From assembly GCA_947038515.1 (NCBI GenBank), contig CAMQWJ010000004.1, positions 62,001 through 126,000 on the forward strand: a DNA stretch of 64,000 bases. Direction: 5' to 3'. Under the pieces are notes generated by a model. It was given only the letters and a program-made list of their open reading frames with translations. It made no database searches and was not told the origin of the DNA. Below, piece after piece: positions 19,071 to 60,119 of the stretch (within the stretch, counting starts at the first letter, position 1; every line of letters begins with the position of its first letter). The stretch comes from an uncultured Fusobacteriaceae bacterium (GTDB lineage Bacteria; Fusobacteriota; Fusobacteriia; Fusobacteriales; Fusobacteriaceae). The position numbers were made by a program, and so were the translations under genes.

Positions 19071-20102
19071 TTAATAAATAAACATTCCGTCACCAAAACT
19101 AAAAAAATGATACTCTTCTTTTACTGCTTCTTTATATATTTCCATTATAAATTCTCTGTTTGAAAAAGCTGAAACAAGCATTAATAAAGTAGATTTTGGT
19201 AAATGAAAATTAGTTATTAAACAATCCACTACTTTAAATTTGTAACCTGGATAAATAAAAATTTCAGTTTCACCCATTCCTGCCATAAGTTCATCATTTT
19301 CACCAATACTAGATTCTAAACATCGCGTTGTTGTTGTACCAACTGATATAATTCTTCTACCCTCTTTTTTTGCTTGATTTATTTTTTCAGCAGCTTGAAT
19401 AGAGATTTCAAATTTTTCACTGTGCATTTTATGATCAAGAACATCCTCTGTCTGAACAGGTCTAAATGTCCCAAGTCCCACTTCTAAAAAAATATCTACT
19501 ATTTCTATCCCTTTTTCTTCTATTTTTTTTAAAAGTTCTTCTGTAAAATGTAACCCTGCTGTTGGAGCTGCTACTGATTCACCTTTTAGTGCATAAACAG
19601 TTTGATATCTTCCTTTTTCTTTCAAGGTTTCTTGAATATATGGGGGCAAAGGCATTGTTCCTAAATTATCTAACACATCTTCAAAAATTCCTTCATAGAC
19701 AAATTTTAAGATTCGATTACCATCCTCTTTTACTTCTAAAAGTTCTGCTATCATTTCTTTATTATTGCCTATATACAGTTTTTGTCCTACTTTTAATTTT
19801 TTAGCGTGTTTTATTAAGCACTCCCAAGTATCTAAACTTAATCTTTTAACTAATAATACCTCTAAAACTCCACCAGTTTCCTTCTTTCCAAATAACCTAG
19901 CTGGAATTACTTTTGTGGAATTTCTAACCAATATATCACTTGGATTTAAATAGTCTATTATATCGGAAAATATTTTATGTTCTATTTTATTTTTATTTTT
20001 ATCGATTGTCATTAATCTTGCACTATCTCTTGGAGTTCTTGGTAATTGTCCAATTAAATTTTCTGGCAATTCATAATCATAATCCAATAATTTTGTTGAC
20101 AT
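19071..20102 (-). CDS. queA: S-adenosylmethionine:tRNA ribosyltransferase-isomerase
   Basis: A 343-residue enzyme that transfers the ribosyl part of SAM to 7-aminomethyl-deazaguanine in tRNA, a late step of queuosine synthesis. It has DYDYELPENLIGQLPRTPRD, SARLMTIDK, VAAPTAGLHFTEELL, LEVGLGTFRPVQTEDV and the terminal HFFSFGDGMFI. The ATG at 20102 is chosen because GTGAGGA precedes it; it overlaps the end of prmC by 26 bp, showing translational coupling. Confidence 0.95.
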   Translation of the reverse strand: MSTKLLDYDYELPENLIGQLPRTPRDSARLMTIDKNKNKIEHKIFSDIIDYLNPSDILVRNSTKVIPARLFGKKETGGVLEVLLVKRLSLDTWECLIKHAKKLKVGQKLYIGNNKEMIAELLEVKEDGNRILKFVYEGIFEDVLDNLGTMPLPPYIQETLKEKGRYQTVYALKGESVAAPTAGLHFTEELLKKIEEKGIEIVDIFLEVGLGTFRPVQTEDVLDHKMHSEKFEISIQAAEKINQAKKEGRRIISVGTTTTRCLESSIGENDELMAGMGETEIFIYPGYKFKVVDCLITNFHLPKSTLLMLVSAFSNREFIMEIYKEAVKEEYHFFSFGDGMFIY

Positions 20103-31987: not shown

Positions 31988-32698
31988 CTAAACTTCTAAT
32001 ATCTCCCCATCAGTTGTAAGTGTCACAACCTCCCATGGTATTAATTTCCCACAATCTTTCAATGCTGATATAATCGCATTTTCAAGACCACCACAACATG
32101 GTACATCCATGCGTACAACTGTCACTGTTTTTATATTATTGTTTGTAAGCACTTCAGTTAATTTTATAGAATAGTCAATATTATCTAACTTTGGACATCC
32201 TATTAATGTTATCTTATTTCTCATAAATTCTTGATGAAAATTACCATAAGCATATGCTGCACAGTCAGCAGCAATAAGAAGTTTTGCACCATGAAAATAA
32301 GGAGCATTTTCTGGTACAAGTTTTATTTGTACAGGCCACTGATTTAAATTTGTGGTAATTGTTTTAAATTCTTCAGATATTCCACTAACTATTTTTTCTC
32401 TTTTAATTGTCTTAGAATTTTTACCAGGACAACTAAATGGAATGTTCTTTACTTCTTTTTTATCAACTAATATATCAGGTAAAACTTTTTCATTAGATCT
32501 ATTAACTTCTTTTTCAACAAAACTAATTGCATTAGTAGGACAAACTGGTAAACAATTCCCTAGTCCATCACAGTAATCTTCACGTAAGAGAGTTGCTTTC
32601 CCTTCAACCATACCTATTGCACTTTCTTTACAAGCATTTACACAAAGACCACACCCTACACATTTTTCTTTATCAATTGTAATAATTTTTTTTATCAT
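31988..32698 (-). CDS. 4Fe-4S ferredoxin-type protein, probable Hcp electron donor
   Basis: A 236-residue protein. The N-terminus carries one canonical ferredoxin cluster motif, CVGCGLCVNACKE, and a variant second, CDGLGNCLPVCP (near 43-54). The C-terminal half contains SCPGKNSK and cysteines in AADCAAYAYG, GCPKLDN and VPCCGGLE, a pattern of extra redox centres. In other anaerobes such genes sit directly upstream of hcp and are coregulated; a role as reductant for Hcp is inferred. ATG at 32698 follows GGGAGGTTCAAC. Confidence 0.85.
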   Translation of the reverse strand: MIKKIITIDKEKCVGCGLCVNACKESAIGMVEGKATLLREDYCDGLGNCLPVCPTNAISFVEKEVNRSNEKVLPDILVDKKEVKNIPFSCPGKNSKTIKREKIVSGISEEFKTITTNLNQWPVQIKLVPENAPYFHGAKLLIAADCAAYAYGNFHQEFMRNKITLIGCPKLDNIDYSIKLTEVLTNNNIKTVTVVRMDVPCCGGLENAIISALKDCGKLIPWEVVTLTTDGEILEV

Positions 32699-53111: not shown

Positions 53112-55016
53112 TTATACATCTAAATTCTTTACATAAGTTGCATTTTCCTCTATAAATTCTCTTCTTGGTTCAACTTTGTCTCCCATAAGTTTATCAAATA
53201 ATAAGTCTGCTTGACGAGCATCATCAATGGAAACTTGTAATAATGTTCTACTATCTGGATTCATTGTTGTACTCCAAAGTTGTTCTGGATTCATTTCTCC
53301 AAGACCTTTATATCTTTGTAAAGTGTAACGTTTGTTCTCTCTATCAAGATTACTTGTTGCTTCTTTAAGTTGTTTCTCACTATAAGCATAAACTGAACTT
53401 TTTCCTGAACTTACTTTATATAGTGGAGGTTGAGCAATAAAAATATTTCCATTTTGTACAAGTTCAACCATATATCTATAAAGAAAAGTTAATATTAATG
53501 TTCTAATATGTGCACCATCCACATCGGCATCGGTCATTATTATTATTTTTCCATATCTTAATTTTTCGCCATTAAAATTATCTCCAATTCCCGTTCCAAA
53601 GGCTGTTATCATACTTCTAATCTCTGTGTTTTCAAGAGCTCTATGAAGTCCTGATTTTTCAACATTGATAATTTTACCTCTCAATGGCAAAATTGCTTGA
53701 AACGATCTATCTCTTCCTTGTTTAGCAGAACCACCAGCAGATTCTCCCTCAACTATATAAACTTCACATTCTTCAGGTTTTTTAGATGAACAATCTGCTA
53801 ATTTCCCTGGTAATGAACCTACATCTAATGCTGATTTTCTTAAAACTAGTTCCCTTGCTCTTTGAGCTGCTTCTCTTGCTCTTTTAGAATTCAACACTTT
53901 TTCAACTAATTTTCTTGTTTCTTCTGGATTATCTTCTAAAAACATTTTTAAGAAATCTCCTGAAACCTTTGAAGTTATTCCTGTTACTTCTGAATTTCCA
54001 AGTTTTGTTTTTGTTTGTCCTTCAAATTGAGGTTGTGCAACTTTTACAGAAATAATCGCTGTTAGCCCCTCTCTTATATCTCCACCTTGAAGTTTTCCAT
54101 CTTTTTCTTTTAACAACCCTTGAGTTTTAGCTACATCATTTATAACTCTTGTTAAAGCTGTTCTAAAACCACTTACATGAGTTCCACCTTCAGGGGTGTT
54201 TATATTATTTACAAAGGAATATATTGTTTCTTTTTGTGTTATATTATATGTCATAGCGATCTCAACATCAACATTGTCTACATTTCCAGACATAAAGACT
54301 GGAGTAGACATGATAGGAGTCTGTCCTTGCTCTATTTCTTTTATGTAATCTAAAATTCCACCATCAAATTTTAAATCAGAAACTTTATTTTCTTCTTTTC
54401 TTGAGTCTGTAAAAATTATATTTAATCCTCTATTCAAATAAGCTAATTCTTTAAATCTTGTTTCTAAAATAGAAAAACTATATATTAATGTTTCAAAAAT
54501 TTCATGATCTGCTTTAAATTTAAAAGCTGTTCCTGTCCCTTCAGAAACACCTATTACCTCTAAAATACCACAAGGAATACCCCTTTCAAACCTTTGAAAA
54601 TAAAGTTTTTCATCTCTTTTTACTGTAACTTCTGTCCATTCAGATAGAGCATTAACAACTGAAGCACCTACACCGTGAAGTCCTCCTGAAACTTTATAAT
54701 TATCATTCTCAAATTTTCCACCTGCATGTAAGACTGTCATTACTACTTCAAGAGCACTTTTTCCATACTTAGGATGGATACCAGTTGGGATTCCACGTCC
54801 ATTATCTATTATTTCAACTATATTGTCTGGTAAAAGATTCACGTATATTTTATTACAATACCCTGCTAACGCTTCATCTATTGAATTGTCTATAACTTCC
54901 CATACTAAATGGTGTAACCCTCTTTCTGATGTACTTCCTATATACATCCCAGGCCTTTTTCTTACTGCTTCTAGTCCTTCTAAGACTGTTATATCTTCTG
55001 CTTGATAATTATTCAT
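53112..55016 (-). CDS. gyrB: DNA gyrase subunit B
   Basis: A 634-residue GyrB. ATPase motifs [12 protein letters not shown] and [17 protein letters not shown]; Toprim motifs [15 protein letters not shown] and [12 protein letters not shown]. The length is the short type without the large C-terminal insertion. The ATG at 55016 follows GGAGGAAAAA and overlaps the end of the DciA-like gene by 8 bp. Confidence 0.97.
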
Positions 55017-55332
55017 TTTTTCCTCCACAATACTTCATTTTCTCTACTTGAACCGGTCCTACTTTTATTCGGATATTTTTAATATAATTTTCTTGAATCA
55101 ACTTATTACATTTTTCTACAATCATGTTTTCTCTCATGCTTAAATAATGAGAAATAACACTATTCTCTGTTATAATATAAAGGGTTGAATCCTTTAATGT
55201 TTTAGGAAAACTTTTTTTATCTATCTCCCCAACTATATCTTTCCAATTGTTTTTTATAAATACTTCTTTCAATTTTATACTTTTTTTCAAAGCATTTTCT
55301 ATGAGAGTTTTAATATCTATCACTTCTATCAT
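55009..55332 (-). CDS. DUF721/DciA-like protein, probable helicase loader
   Basis: A 107-residue protein with the DUF721 pattern: [39 protein letters not shown]. DciA proteins bind DnaB and assist helicase loading in many bacteria. It lies between recF and gyrB and overlaps both by a few bases, so it is part of the replication cluster. Confidence 0.8.
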
Positions 55333-56432
55333 ATGAATTCCTCTTGAATTTTTCCTTTTTCTATTTTAAACTTTTTATTTTGTATTTCAATCTCTTCTGT
55401 TGAACTTATAAAAAGTTGAATCTCTCTTTTTTTTAAGTATTCTAATATATTTTTTTTTCTATTAGAATCAAAGTATGATGAAATATCATCTATTATAAAT
55501 ATTGGATTTTCTTTTTTTTCACGAAAGATCATATCAATCTCTGAGAGTTTTAAAGAAAAAACTATAGATTTTTTTTCCCCTTGAGATGAGTATGATTTTG
55601 CATCTTTTCCATCTAATAAAAACTTAAATTCATCTCTTTGTGGACCAACTAATGAATAACCATATTTTTTTTCTAAAAGAGTTTGTTTTTTTATCTCTTC
55701 GCTTATTTTAAACTCTATTTCTTTTAAAGTATCTTTTCTACTATACTCTATATTTGAAATATAACTTAGTCCCAACTCTTTTTTATCATCAAAAATTTTT
55801 CTATAATTTAAATTAAGGATTATTCCAATATTTTTCATATATTCCATACGATTCAAAACTATTTTTCCTGCTAAAGTTATAAACTCATTTTCATATATAG
55901 AAAAAATTTCTTCTTTTGTCTTTTTTTCTTTTAAATATTGATTTCTAATTTTCAAAATTTTATTATAATTTTTAAGGTTTATATAATATTCGTTTTGTGC
56001 TTGGGAAATTTCTTCATCAAAAAATTTTCTTCTCACACTGGGAGAACCAGTTATTAACTCTATATCTTCTGGAATAAAAATAACAACATTTATTTTTCCA
56101 AAAAATTCTTCATGTGATACTTTTTTACCGTTAAAATTATAATCTTTCTTTTTGTCATTAAATTTAACAGTTAAATTTTTCTCCCCTTCTCTATCCTTAA
56201 AAGCTATGTAAGTTCCACATTTAGCATTATTATACTTTATAAGCTCAACTACCTTACTAGTTCGAAAACTTTTTCCTGTTGCAGTGAAATAAATGGCTTC
56301 AAGTATGCTTGTTTTACCTTGACCATTTTTACCATGAAATAAGTTGAAACCTGATTCAAACTTTATATTAAAATCATCTAAATTTCTAAAATTTATAAAA
56401 TTAATTTCTTTTATTTCCACCAATTTCACCAC
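55329..56432 (-). CDS. recF: DNA repair/replication protein RecF
   Basis: A 367-residue RecF, an SMC-like ATPase. Walker A is FHGKNGQGKTSILEA near residues 32-46. The signature motif is YSSQGEKKSIVFSL, and the Walker B is FIIDDISSYFDSNR. It binds at single-strand gaps and helps load RecA. GTG at 56432 is the longest frame; internal GTG or TTG codons at the start are also possible, and no ribosome-binding site decides. It overlaps the DciA-like gene by 4 bp. Confidence 0.94.
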   Translation of the reverse strand: MVKLVEIKEINFINFRNLDDFNIKFESGFNLFHGKNGQGKTSILEAIYFTATGKSFRTSKVVELIKYNNAKCGTYIAFKDREGEKNLTVKFNDKKKDYNFNGKKVSHEEFFGKINVVIFIPEDIELITGSPSVRRKFFDEEISQAQNEYYINLKNYNKILKIRNQYLKEKKTKEEIFSIYENEFITLAGKIVLNRMEYMKNIGIILNLNYRKIFDDKKELGLSYISNIEYSRKDTLKEIEFKISEEIKKQTLLEKKYGYSLVGPQRDEFKFLLDGKDAKSYSSQGEKKSIVFSLKLSEIDMIFREKKENPIFIIDDISSYFDSNRKKNILEYLKKREIQLFISSTEEIEIQNKKFKIEKGKIQEEFI

Positions 56433-56438
56433 TCATTT

Positions 56439-56654
56439 TTATTTTTCTTGAACAACTTCATAAATTTTTTCTTGGAAACTAATTATATCACCGTGATAGA
56501 GTTTTCTTCCTCTTCTAAGTTCTTTTTCATTGTTTACTAAAACTTTACCCTCTTGAATATAATATTTTGCATCTGTACCACTATTTACTGTTCCACTCCA
56601 TTTTAAAAATTGATCAAGCTTTATAAACTCACTTTGTATTTTTATTTTTTCCAT
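56439..56654 (-). CDS. yaaA: S4-domain protein YaaA
   Basis: A 71-residue S4 RNA-binding domain: IKLDQFLKWSGTVNSGTDAKYYIQEGKVLVNNEKELRRGRKL. YaaA genes sit between dnaN and recF in many Gram-positive origins; the same position beside recF is kept here, but dnaA and dnaN are not. The ATG at 56654 follows TTGGAGGAAAA. Confidence 0.87.
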   Translation of the reverse strand: MEKIKIQSEFIKLDQFLKWSGTVNSGTDAKYYIQEGKVLVNNEKELRRGRKLYHGDIISFQEKIYEVVQEK

Positions 56655-56770
56655 TTTTCCTCCAAATAAAAACATTTTCTTCCACATCTATAATACCATA
56701 TTTTTTTTGAAAAATATAGTTCTACTTTCAACAATACTCTTTTCACACCTTATATTATTTAATACTATTT

Positions 56771-58669
56771 TTATTTTCCTTCCTCATCCATTACTTTTTT
56801 TATAAATTCTTTTATTGTGTTTTTATATGCTGGTTTCAACTTGTCTCGCATAGTTAATATAATTTTTTCTGTTATTTCCATTTCTTTTGAACATAATTTT
56901 ATTGCTTTTTTTTCAATTTGAGCCTTTCTATATTCGTCACTTTTTTCAAATTTTTCCATGGCTTTTTTTAGTTCTTTTTCATGAGCGTCAACATTATCGT
57001 TTAAAGTTGTATCAAATAATTTTTGTGTTGTCTCTATATCTTTTTTCTCCAGTGTTGTTACTGCTTTATTAAAAGTTTTTCCAACTCTTTTTATCCCTGT
57101 CTTTGTAAATTTTTGTAAGTTTTCTTTTTTCTCATCTTCTGTAAATCCATTAAATAATGTTAAATTTCTTTTTTTAGGTACTTCTGAATCAGTTAAAATA
57201 TTTTTAACAACACCATTTATATATTGAACAAGTGTTGTTTTTATTGGTGAAGTCAAATTTTTATAAATTTCATTCAAGATTTTAATAATAAACTCTTCCC
57301 CCTCTTGAATAAAAATTTTATATATTTTGTTCTCACTTCTTTTATCCCAACTTTTATTGACATATAAATTTCTTTTTACTTTTTTTATTTTTTCAAGTAC
57401 TTCCACAGGATAATTATATCCTATAGTTTTCGGTGCTAAACTCTCTTTTTTTACTATTTCTTTTTTTTCTAACACTTCATTGATTTCTATTTTATTTTTT
57501 GTTAATAATTTTACTTTATTTTTTGCTGCTATTTGAGTTTTTTCTTTATTAGTTTTACTATCTATGTAAGTAGAAATATGACAAGTTCCATCTTTTTCTT
57601 TATTAAATTTATAAGTTATATTATAAGTATTTTGTTCTTTTATTTCTTCTATACTATAAACTTCTATATATCCAAGCTCCAATATAACATCAAAAGCTTT
57701 TTGAATTCTACTTAAAACTTGTTTTAATCTACATAATATATATTGTTTTGTTTTTCCATTTTTTCCAACTCTCTCAGTAATTTGATCTGTTTTTAAAGGG
57801 ATAATCGCAGCCAATGTTCTAATATTAATAGTATCTATGGTTTGTTCATATCTTATTTTACTTATATATTTATAGATTCTAGCAGCTATTGGATCTAAAT
57901 TCATTATTTCAACTAGTGTTTTCGAATTATATTTCACATATCTTTTTTCTTTTATTTTTTTTCTTATATTTTTATTTAATGTTACTCTATAGTATATTTT
58001 TTTCCCCATTTTTAATTTTTGATATGTTAACAATTTAAATTCTTCATCTTCAAACTTATATTTTCCTAACTTAGTATGATTGGAAACTACAAATTGATAC
58101 TCAGTACTTTTTAAGTTTTTTAAAGCTTGTTCTACTTTAGTATAATAAGTTCTATTCATTTTGTTTCCTAAAAAATTAACAATAAAATCTGAGATTTCAA
58201 AATCAATATACTCATCTCCCTCTTCAACATCCATTTTAGATTCATATAATGATATTAAATAAGTATAAATTTTTTCTTCAAATATAGAGGGTTGAAAAAC
58301 TTTATCTGCACTATTTTTAGCAATTAAAGTACACATCATATTCACTCCCATATCTTCAAAAGTATACTGGATATTGACTCTTTTTTTCTGTTTCTGGGGA
58401 GTAAAGAATGGAAAAATTAACATTTCAACCGGAATATTTATAATATTATCTTTTAAATTTAAAAAGTTTCCTGTCTCTTTTATTACAACTTCTCTGACTT
58501 CAATATCAGGTAGCTCTTCTAATTTTATTTCAACTTTTTGTATTTCCTCTATTAACAAAGGATTTGAACCTATAATTTCTTTTTCTAAATTTTCTTCTTT
58601 ATTTTTTTCTATTAAAGTTGTAGAATCTATTATCTCATAAATTTCAATTTTTTCTTTTTCATTATTCAT
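56771..58669 (-). CDS. Plasmid RepA-like replication initiator in the dnaA position
   Basis: A 632-residue protein resembling plasmid initiators of the RepA (PF10134-type) or Rep_3 winged-helix class. The N-terminal ~85 residues are acidic and low in structure. Two winged-helix blocks follow (about 85-235: FFTPQKQKKRVNIQYTFEDMG; YLISLYESKMDVEEG; FIVNFLGNKMNRTYYTKVEQ. About 240-355: EIMNLDPIAARIYKYISKIRYEQ; LAAIIPLKTDQITERVGKNG; CRLKQVLSRIQKAFDVI). The C-terminal ~270 residues are Lys/Glu-rich and helical. No AAA+ Walker motif or DnaA domain IV is present. It is upstream of yaaA-recF-gyrB-gyrA and divergent from rpmH, the usual dnaA-dnaN slot. Family fit is by pattern, not search. Confidence 0.65.
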   Translation of the reverse strand: MNNEKEKIEIYEIIDSTTLIEKNKEENLEKEIIGSNPLLIEEIQKVEIKLEELPDIEVREVVIKETGNFLNLKDNIINIPVEMLIFPFFTPQKQKKRVNIQYTFEDMGVNMMCTLIAKNSADKVFQPSIFEEKIYTYLISLYESKMDVEEGDEYIDFEISDFIVNFLGNKMNRTYYTKVEQALKNLKSTEYQFVVSNHTKLGKYKFEDEEFKLLTYQKLKMGKKIYYRVTLNKNIRKKIKEKRYVKYNSKTLVEIMNLDPIAARIYKYISKIRYEQTIDTINIRTLAAIIPLKTDQITERVGKNGKTKQYILCRLKQVLSRIQKAFDVILELGYIEVYSIEEIKEQNTYNITYKFNKEKDGTCHISTYIDSKTNKEKTQIAAKNKVKLLTKNKIEINEVLEKKEIVKKESLAPKTIGYNYPVEVLEKIKKVKRNLYVNKSWDKRSENKIYKIFIQEGEEFIIKILNEIYKNLTSPIKTTLVQYINGVVKNILTDSEVPKKRNLTLFNGFTEDEKKENLQKFTKTGIKRVGKTFNKAVTTLEKKDIETTQKLFDTTLNDNVDAHEKELKKAMEKFEKSDEYRKAQIEKKAIKLCSKEMEITEKIILTMRDKLKPAYKNTIKEFIKKVMDEEGK

Positions 58670-59286
58670 CCAAGCACCTCTTTAAAATATTTTTTAATTA
58701 GCTAAAAATATTATACCTTTTTTTGTGTCTATGTACAATAATATTTTTAATAACTTTAATTATCGTTTTTCTTTTTTAACTCCTAGAAAAAATTTACAAT
58801 TCAATTTTTCTTACAAACAATAATAAAAAATAAACTTGCATTTAATTATCTTTATATTTAAAAAAATTATTTTTATTCAACAAATCAAACAGAAAAATTA
58901 ATGTCTACTCACAATAATATAAAGTGTCGGTTAAAATTTTAAGTCTCTCAACAAATAATAAAATTATAAATAAATAAATAATAATAAAATTATAAAGTTT
59001 TTTCATTGTATAAGGTTAATAATAAAAAATAAAAAATAAAGTTTTTTTTCATTTGTAATGACTCAAATTTTTCACTCTTAAATAAAAGTTTAGTCATTAC
59101 ATTATACATCCTACATAAACAACTAAAACTTTTTATCTGTTGTTGTTTTTTATTTTTTATTTTTCTCTTATAGATAAAACTATCAAAATGCTTTTAGTTC
59201 CTTTTTTAAATAACTCTTGACAAATATCAAATAATCTTATAAGATAATAGTCTGAATGAAGTAAAAATCTAGGAGGTGAAACATAT
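58670..59286. other. Candidate chromosomal origin: 617-bp A+T-rich spacer
   Basis: No gene is seen. Transcription diverges from here, and the flanking genes are those of a typical oriC. Visible repeats: AATAATAAAATTATAAA at 58954-58970 and again at 58980-58996; AATAATAAAAAATAAA at 58819-58834 and 59018-59033; AAAGTTTTTTCATTG (58994) and AAAGTTTTTTTTCATTTG (59039). Also an inverted repeat TGTAATGACT (59054-59063) with AGTCATTACA (59092-59101). No sequence matching TTATNCACA was found on either strand by eye. Confidence 0.6.
59217..59245 (+). promoter_or_regulatory. Promoter of rpmH
   Basis: Perfect TTGACA (59217-59222), 17-bp spacer, TAAGAT (59240-59245); a GATAAT 3 bp further is an alternative -10. 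Confidence 0.7.
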
Positions 59287-59421
59287 ATGAAAAGAACGTT
59301 CCAACCTAATAATCATAAAAGAAAAAAAGACCACGGTTTTAGATCTAGAATGAAGACTAAAAACGGAAGAAAAGTCTTGAAAAGAAGAAGAGATAGAGGA
59401 AGAGCTGTATTATCAGCATAA
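59287..59421 (+). CDS. rpmH: 50S ribosomal protein L34
   Basis: A 44-residue L34: [39 protein letters not shown] and VLSA. The ATG at 59287 follows TAGGAGGTGAA. It is first of the rpmH-rnpA-yidD-yidC-jag-mnmE run that marks the origin in many bacteria. Confidence 0.97.
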
Positions 59422-59449
59422 AACCCGGTGCATATTTCACCGGGTTTTT
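59421..59449 (+). terminator. Hairpin overlapping the rpmH stop codon
   Basis: AAACCCGGTG (59421-59430) pairs with CACCGGGTTT (59438-59447), followed by T's. It probably makes rpmH far more abundant than the downstream genes by partial termination. Confidence 0.85.
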
Positions 59450-59491
59450 CAAAATATAAATTTCTTTTTTTATTTATTTTAAGGAGAGAAG

Positions 59492-59854
59492 ATGGAAATA
59501 TCTAGATTAAAAAAAGATAAAGAGTTTCAAATAGTATATAATAGTGGAAATAAAGAATTTGGATATTATTCTTTAATTTTTTATAAAAAAATGAAAAATA
59601 AAAATGAAGTATCAAAGATAGGATACGTAGCTAGTAAAAAAACAGGAAATGCAGTATGTAGAAATAGATTAAGAAGATTATTAAAAGAATTTTTCAGATT
59701 AAATACCTTAAAATTAAAAACAGGGTATAATATAGTCTGTGTAGCTAAAAAAAAAGCTGGTGAAAACATTACAGTTTTAAAATATCAAGATATAGAAAAG
59801 GATATGAATAAAGTATTAAAAAAAGCTAACCTAATAGAAAGTAAGATAAAATAA
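59492..59854 (+). CDS. rnpA: Ribonuclease P protein component
   Basis: A 120-residue basic protein: RLKKDKEFQIVYNSGNKEFGYYSLIFYKK, then IGYVASKKTGNAVCRNRLRRLLKEFFR, the RNR motif of RnpA. It binds RNase P RNA and matures tRNA 5' ends. ATG follows AAGGAGAGAAG. Confidence 0.95.
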   Translation: MEISRLKKDKEFQIVYNSGNKEFGYYSLIFYKKMKNKNEVSKIGYVASKKTGNAVCRNRLRRLLKEFFRLNTLKLKTGYNIVCVAKKKAGENITVLKYQDIEKDMNKVLKKANLIESKIK

Positions 59855-59864
59855 AAAGAGTATA

Positions 59865-59895
59865 TCCTAATTATTTATTAAAAAGTATTAGGAGG
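59865..59895 (+). promoter_or_regulatory. Hairpin overlapping the yidD ribosome-binding site
   Basis: TCCTAAT (59865-59871) pairs with ATTAGGA (59887-59893), which contains part of AGGAGG. The distance from AGGAGG to the ATG at 59910 is 14 nt, longer than usual. Confidence 0.5.
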
Positions 59896-59909
59896 TTAAA
59901 AAATTAAAA

Positions 59910-60119
59910 ATGAAAATAATAATTTTATCATTAATAAAATTTTATCAATTATATATTTCAAAAATTTTTGGAAAAAAATGTAGATTTTACCCAACTTGTT
60001 CAGCTTATACCTATCAAGCAATTGAGAAATATGGAGTAATAAAAGGTATATACTTGGGTATAAAAAGAATTGTAAAATGTCATCCCTTTCATCCAGGAGG
60101 AATAGATTTTTTACCATAA
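59910..60119 (+). CDS. yidD: Membrane protein insertion efficiency factor YidD
   Basis: A 69-residue Yid[36 protein letters not shown] and HPGGIDFLP, the complete family pattern with three cysteines. It is membrane-associated and aids YidC-dependent insertion. Lies between rnpA and yidC as in many genomes. Confidence 0.94.

What the first reader, a model, noticed from the sequence alone, without database searches (positions are those of the whole stretch)
58670..59286. Origin-like spacer lacks DnaA boxes but holds A+T-rich direct repeats
By eye, no TTATNCACA appears on either strand in this 617 bp. Instead AATAATAAAATTATAAA is repeated 26 bp apart, AATAATAAAAAATAAA occurs twice, the AAAGTTTTTTCATT motif occurs twice, and there is a 10-bp inverted repeat with a 28-nt loop. 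Repeats at regular spacing near a RepA-like gene recall plasmid iterons; the A+T richness would suit an unwinding element.
Basis: partly seen in the sequence, partly recalled or inferred. Interest (0 to 1): 0.6.

Follow-up and report, generated by a model that had tools for sequence, protein, structure and literature searches.

The report
Plasmid-type origin replaced DnaA in Fusobacteriaceae
This stretch looks like the chromosome's replication origin in a family of bacteria (relatives of Fusobacterium) that seems to have lost DnaA, the near-universal starter protein, and to start chromosome copying with a plasmid-type starter protein and its repeated binding sites instead.

Summary
The spacer (58670-59286) is very probably the chromosomal origin. 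The GC-skew minimum is here, and two complete relatives switch skew at the same locus. The divergent 632-aa ORF (56771-58669, -) occupies the dnaA slot of sister families (S4-recF-dciA-gyrB on one side, rpmH-rnpA-yidD-yidC-jag-mnmE on the other) but is not DnaA: its model matches RctB (Z 15.4) and RepE/pi (Z 11-12). Full DnaA is absent from 61 of 61 genomes of this family and present in 36 of 37 other Fusobacteriota genomes; the Rep-type gene is strong in 56 of 61. Nearest relatives are plasmid rep genes (Haliovirga pHIC, Ilyobacter pILYOP01/02). A different repeat, TGTMTAYNNNCAATAATA, is found in 29 of 29 spacers; all 156 PWM sites lie on one strand, often about 105 bp apart. The window has two strong and two weak copies. 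Best reading: an iteron/Rep module replaced DnaA-oriC in situ in the ancestor of Fusobacteriaceae. Binding, unwinding and essentiality are not shown. No report of it was found in the searched library.

The parts
56771..58669 (-). Rep-type (RctB/RepE-fold) initiator gene, 632 aa, in the dnaA slot
   Evidence: Pfam RPA PF10134 E 4.8e-6, just under cut-off; fold match RctB Z 15.4, RepE/pi Z 11-12; strong in 56 of 61 family genomes; synteny
58670..59286. Putative chromosomal origin spacer, 82% A+T
   Evidence: Cumulative GC-skew minimum; skew switch at the homologous locus in relatives; no DnaA box
58726..58743 (+). Iteron 1, TGTCTATGTACAATAATA, 22 bits
   Evidence: PWM trained without this genome
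58808..58825 (+). Weak iteron-like site, 3' half only (CAATAATA), 7.2 bits
58902..58919 (+). Iteron 2, TGTCTACTCACAATAATA, 21.7 bits
   Evidence: PWM
59007..59024 (+). Degenerate iteron, TGTATAAGGTTAATAATA, 12.1 bits, 105 bp after iteron 2
   Evidence: PWM
58940..59045 (.).
   Evidence: Least stable 60-bp windows of the spacer; 89% A+T at 58930-59050
55009..55332 (-). dciA, helicase operator
   Evidence: Pfam DciA E 4.9e-9
55329..56432 (-). recF, conserved neighbour
56439..56687 (-). S4-domain gene, conserved neighbour
59287..59421 (+). rpmH, conserved neighbour on the other side of the origin

Best explanation
The spacer is the single chromosomal origin. It is fired not by DnaA but by the divergently encoded 632-aa Rep-type protein, a two-winged-helix initiator of the RctB/RepE/pi fold. 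Inferred mechanism: Rep monomers bind the same-orientation 18-bp iterons (TGTMTAYNNNCAATAATA), often about 105 bp (ten helical turns) apart, melt the A+T-rich stretch around 58940-59045, and DciA helps load DnaB. Evolution: an iteron/rep module from a plasmid took over the dnaA slot in the ancestor of Fusobacteriaceae and dnaA was lost, a natural and permanent integrative suppression. Shown here: absence of recognisable DnaA, position of the Rep gene, its fold match, the conserved iterons, the skew switch, the plasmid relatives. Inferred: binding, melting, helicase recruitment, essentiality, direction of transfer.
For: DnaA: no full PF00308 match in 61 of 61 family f1 genomes (best 3.4e-12 in short frames), full matches in 36 of 37 others; DnaA domain IV PF08299 in 0 of 61 against 36 of 37. 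Rep gene: E <= 1e-130 in 56 of 61. Slot: same neighbours as dnaA in G062, G063 and others, also in Fusobacterium vincentii, F. mortiferum, Propionigenium maris as far as the loci reach. Origin: skew minimum in the window; signs of 20 of 20 samples in G038 and 19 of 20 in G026 fit one origin here. Iterons: exact core in 29 of 29 spacers; 156 of 156 PWM sites on one strand, 44 of 127 spacings 103-107 bp; 0 DnaA boxes in 29 spacers against 37 per roughly 10 kb at the dnaA loci of G068 and G065. Fold: RctB Z 15.4, RepE/pi 11-12, first unrelated row 6.8. Plasmid kin: pHIC rep-parA-parB, pILYOP02 rep-parA, conjugative, pILYOP01, each with its own same-strand repeat arrays. Tree: 22 chromosomal rows on one side of a branch, 100/99.
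Against: No experiment shows binding or firing. No strong initiator copy was found in 5 of 61 family genomes (G040, G046, G051, G056, G060; drafts of 62-93% completeness; in G051 and G056 the match is cut by a contig end). One window iteron is degenerate and a further one is half a site. Near-exact iterons also occur elsewhere in G000 (two zero-mismatch sites on the same contig). Sequence-profile support for the Rep family is weak (26.7 bits against a cut-off of 27; 11 of 16 members match at E 0.01); the fold model has mean pLDDT 68.9. Plasmid rows have very long branches, so the root is unsure.
Confidence: 0.86

Rival explanations
1. The 632-aa protein is only a very divergent DnaA, and the origin is an ordinary DnaA-oriC with altered boxes. 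(The 2007 F. [quoted passage not shown]
For: Same slot beside recF/gyrB (PMC1924603 passages).
Against: No PF00308 or PF08299 match at the gene; profile comparison with ten sister DnaAs gives probability 0.3% and E 0.18; no conserved Walker A (one unconserved GxxxxGKT string in the window protein only, 17 of 18 rows have none); fold matches RctB/RepE.
Confidence: 0.02
2. The Rep-type gene is an integrated plasmid relic or a transcription regulator, and the chromosome starts by another, unknown initiator at the same spacer or independently of any initiator, as in dnaA-less cyanobacteria.
For: DnaA-independent replication without a known substitute exists in cyanobacteria (PMC7198777 passages); Rep proteins often autoregulate their promoters (recalled).
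Against: The protein is well conserved (mean column identity 65% over 16 members) and strong in 56 of 61 genomes; a clear single skew switch, unlike the multi-origin cyanobacteria; iterons conserved at the spacer in 29 of 29.
Confidence: 0.09
3. The repeats are chance consequences of 82% A+T, and nothing special is bound here.
Against: CAATAATA excess count 64 against 0.55 in shuffles; second-best same-strand PWM score of the window spacer is 21.7 against a maximum of 6.4 in 1000 shuffles; 156 of 156 sites on one strand.
Confidence: 0.02

Closest known systems
RctB / ori2 of Vibrio cholerae chromosome 2
   Same: Plasmid-like initiator of the same fold (RctB domains 2-3, Z 15.4), iteron array, works on a chromosome (PMC6284228 passages)
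   Different: RctB runs a secondary chromosome in a cell that keeps DnaA-oriC on chromosome 1; here DnaA is gone and the main chromosome is served. Protein identity in the structural alignment is 11%.
Iteron plasmids F (RepE), R6K (pi), pPS10 (RepA)
   Same: Two winged-helix initiator fold (Z 11-12 for RepE and pi, 7.9 for the pPS10 RepA N-terminal domain), direct repeats beside rep
   Different: Classic iterons are near-contiguous, about 22 bp apart (recalled); here 18-bp sites often lie about 105 bp apart. Plasmid against chromosome; the protein has a longer C-terminal part.
Plasmids pHIC (Haliovirga abyssi), pILYOP01 and pILYOP02 (Ilyobacter polytropus)
   Same: Homologous initiator at 33-38% identity, same-strand repeats upstream of rep; pILYOP02 repeats alternate about 44/61 bp, i.e. 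a 105-bp period
   Different: Independent replicons; different iteron sequences; parA (and parB) beside rep on pHIC and pILYOP02
dnaA-less cyanobacteria (Cyanobacterium aponinum, Geminocystis)
   Same: Free-living bacteria without dnaA (PMC7198777 passages)
   Different: Multiple origins and no named substitute initiator there; here one origin with an evident substitute

Membership tests
Iteron/Rep (Rep_3/RepA-like winged-helix) replicon | Initiator with two winged-helix domains | tested here: met
   On a predicted model: VIA-align Z 15.4 RctB, 11-12 RepE/pi, over model residues 78-360
Iteron/Rep (Rep_3/RepA-like winged-helix) replicon | Sequence-profile membership over curated cut-off | tested here: inconclusive
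   PF10134 RPA 26.7 bits against cut-off 27 for the window protein; 11 of 16 members match at E 0.01; no relevant NCBIfam match
Iteron/Rep (Rep_3/RepA-like winged-helix) replicon | Direct repeats of about 18-22 bp next to rep, same orientation | tested here: met
   Core in 29 of 29 spacers; 156 of 156 PWM sites on one strand; a few opposite-strand sites in distant members
Iteron/Rep (Rep_3/RepA-like winged-helix) replicon | Rep binds the iterons and melts an A+T-rich element | not testable with these tools
   Needs purified protein or footprints
DnaA-oriC | DnaA gene (AAA+ domain and domain IV) | tested here: not met
   0 of 61 family genomes for PF08299; no full PF00308
DnaA-oriC | DnaA boxes at the origin | tested here: not met
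   0 TTWTNCACA in 29 spacers; none within one mismatch in the window spacer
RctB-type secondary chromosome replicon | Second replicon beside a DnaA-driven chromosome | tested here: not met
   Gene lies on the main chromosome beside recF/gyrB/rpmH and DnaA is absent

The most novel reading that the evidence does not exclude
A whole family of bacteria, including Fusobacterium, gave up DnaA in its ancestor and replicates its main chromosome from a single origin with a plasmid-derived RctB/RepE-fold initiator installed in the dnaA slot. Extra copies of the iteron scattered within about 100 kb of the origin serve as a titration or handcuffing array that couples initiation to origin-region copy number.
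Probability: 0.6. Interest if true: 0.92.

Novelty: new variant of a known kind. Interest (0 to 1): 0.85.

Why it matters
DnaA is treated as the near-universal bacterial initiator, and a 2020 paper states that outside cyanobacteria no free-living species without dnaA had been reported (PMC7198777 passages). If confirmed, a family that includes the human-associated Fusobacterium is a natural, stable case of integrative suppression. It would let one ask directly how a cell cycle is timed without DnaA-ATP, would put these bacteria outside the reach of DnaA-directed antibacterials, and would offer a family-specific target.

Tried and rejected
Helical phasing of all spacings: the mean resultant at a 10.5-bp period was only 0.39 and no better than at other periods, so I claim only the frequent 105-bp spacing. 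Genome-wide enrichment of the iteron at up to 3 mismatches in G000: slight at most (258/263 against 237/238 in the control); at up to 1 mismatch 7/5 against 2/1. A second conserved motif (AAAATCAAG) showed no fixed place. Search of solved structures by sequence profile gave no meaningful hit. The clustering of iterons near the origin is strong in G026, G027, G028 but weak in G038 (2 of 6 outside sites within 100 kb, P 0.15), G039 (3 of 9) and G016 (4 of 8). That the weak PF00308 hits of the family are IstB/DnaC-like proteins is my inference from their length, not tested. All 10 paper searches showed no report of DnaA loss in Fusobacteriaceae in their listings; preprints and most subscription journals are not held.

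Full report
What is there. The spacer 58670-59286 separates a 632-aa ORF on the minus strand (56771-58669) from rpmH on the plus strand. Downstream of the ORF come an S4-domain gene, recF, dciA, gyrB and gyrA; beyond rpmH come rnpA, yidD, yidC, jag and mnmE. The window's cumulative GC skew is lowest in the 58001-60000 bin.

Most of it is correct.

DnaA is missing. The window's genome G000 (listed as 100% complete) has no DnaA AAA+ match. Across 98 Fusobacteriota genomes, family f1 (61 genomes, G000 included) has no full DnaA: its PF00308 matches reach at best 3.4e-12 in short frames, while 36 of the other 37 genomes have full matches at 4.3e-45 or better. DnaA domain IV gives 0 of 61 against 36 of 37; the one exception outside f1 (G086) is a draft of 82% completeness. 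f1 corresponds to Fusobacteriaceae: related records carry names such as Fusobacterium, Cetobacterium, Propionigenium, Ilyobacter and Psychrilyobacter.

What took its place. The window protein has strong relatives (E 1e-130 or better) in 56 of 61 f1 genomes; the five without are drafts, and a profile search of these five found only contig-end fragments (G051, G056), plasmid-like copies (G060) or nothing (G040, G046). In sister families dnaA sits in exactly this slot: Haliovirga abyssi (G062) has dnaA, S4, recF, dciA, gyrB, gyrA at the start of its chromosome record and rpmH to mnmE at its end. So the substitute occupies the old dnaA place, with the same neighbours.

Kind of protein. Sequence profiles barely name it (Pfam RPA 26.7 bits, cut-off 27), and profile comparison with ten DnaAs of sister families is negative. 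A fold predicted from an alignment of 18 rows (mean pLDDT 68.9; residue blocks from 90 to 360 mostly over 70) matches RctB domains 2-3 at Z 15.4 (247 aligned, rmsd 4.5) and RepE and pi at Z 11-12; the first unrelated row has Z 6.8. RctB is the iteron-binding, plasmid-like initiator of Vibrio chromosome 2 (PMC6284228, passages seen).

Plasmid kin. Among 72,556 plasmid records, 6 hold a relative, all Fusobacteriota; one of these, a 2.1-Mb Fusobacterium vincentii 'plasmid', carries the chromosomal neighbourhood and is evidently the chromosome. On pHIC of Haliovirga the gene heads a rep-parA-parB set; on conjugative pILYOP02 it precedes parA. Each of three plasmids has its own same-strand direct repeats upstream of rep: 11 copies on pHIC, 9 on pILYOP01, 10 on pILYOP02 with alternating steps of about 44 and 61 bp, a 105-bp period (pHIC also shows 4 opposite-strand matches of the loose pattern). 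In a tree of 30 rows the 22 chromosomal proteins lie on one side of a branch (support 100/99), pHIC nearest; long branches leave the root unsure.

The conserved repeat. In 29 spacers the k-mer CAATAATA has an excess count of 64 against 0.55 in shuffles. Extended, the element is TGTATATNNNCAATAATA; a weight matrix trained without the window finds 156 sites, all on the same strand, and 44 of 127 adjacent spacings are 103-107 bp. The core TGTMTAYNNNCAATAATA is exact in 29 of 29 spacers. The same spacers have no TTWTNCACA, whereas about 10 kb at the dnaA loci of G068 and G065 hold 37 each. In 20 further loci, many of them records of the same genomes, the array is again present in all; some distant members (L118-L122, L124) also have opposite-strand sites. 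In the window the sites are 58726 and 58902 (22 and 21.7 bits), 59007 (12.1 bits, 105 bp on) and a half site at 58808 (7.2 bits).

An origin. In complete G038, 20 of 20 sampled 20-kb pieces fit one switch from negative to positive skew between 260 and 280 kb, where the initiator lies at 277-278 kb; in G026 19 of 20 fit a switch at 1.36 Mb, again the initiator; fine profiles of G039 and G016 also switch at the gene. This single V-shaped pattern differs from the multi-origin dnaA-less cyanobacteria (PMC7198777, passages seen).

Mechanism. None of these steps is shown for this protein.

Satellite sites. Outside the spacer, 19 of 34, 14 of 35 and 15 of 24 near-exact sites in G026, G027 and G028 lie within 100 kb of the origin, where 1.4 to 1.9 are expected; the effect is weak or absent in G038, G039 and G016. 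At up to 1 mismatch most f1 genomes carry more sites than the reversed control, and sister genomes mostly do not. This recalls DnaA-box clusters or plasmid incompatibility sites (recalled), and could be a copy-number sensor.

Prior knowledge. The 2007 F. [quoted passage not shown] Ten searches of the open-access library showed no statement that Fusobacteriaceae lack DnaA (calls listed under Tried and rejected; for most papers I saw only the listing); preprints are not held, so a prior report cannot be excluded.

Noticed in passing
NZ_CP084075.1 (L125): A 2.1-Mb 'plasmid pSB055A' of Fusobacterium vincentii holds the chromosomal origin neighbourhood (rep, recF, gyrB, gyrA, rpmH to mnmE) and is evidently the mislabelled chromosome.
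   Followed up: partly
G009:C6 (L060): A 22-kb contig carries the origin region twice in inverted orientation, one initiator copy full of stops: probably an assembly artefact.
   Followed up: no
G000:C11:2621-2941: A second frame (529 aa) matches the C-terminal part of the initiator at 34% identity: possible plasmid or integrated-element rep gene.
   Followed up: no
G043:C2, G044:C4, G054:C3, G059:C1: Contigs of about 0.87-1.15 Mb carry initiator paralogues with their own repeats; these look like secondary replicons, so some genomes may run all replicons on Rep-type initiators.
   Followed up: partly
window 19758-19778 (-), 32132-32152 (-): Strong iteron-like sites (20.3 and 17.6 bits) away from the origin on the same contig, candidate satellite sites.
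   Followed up: partly
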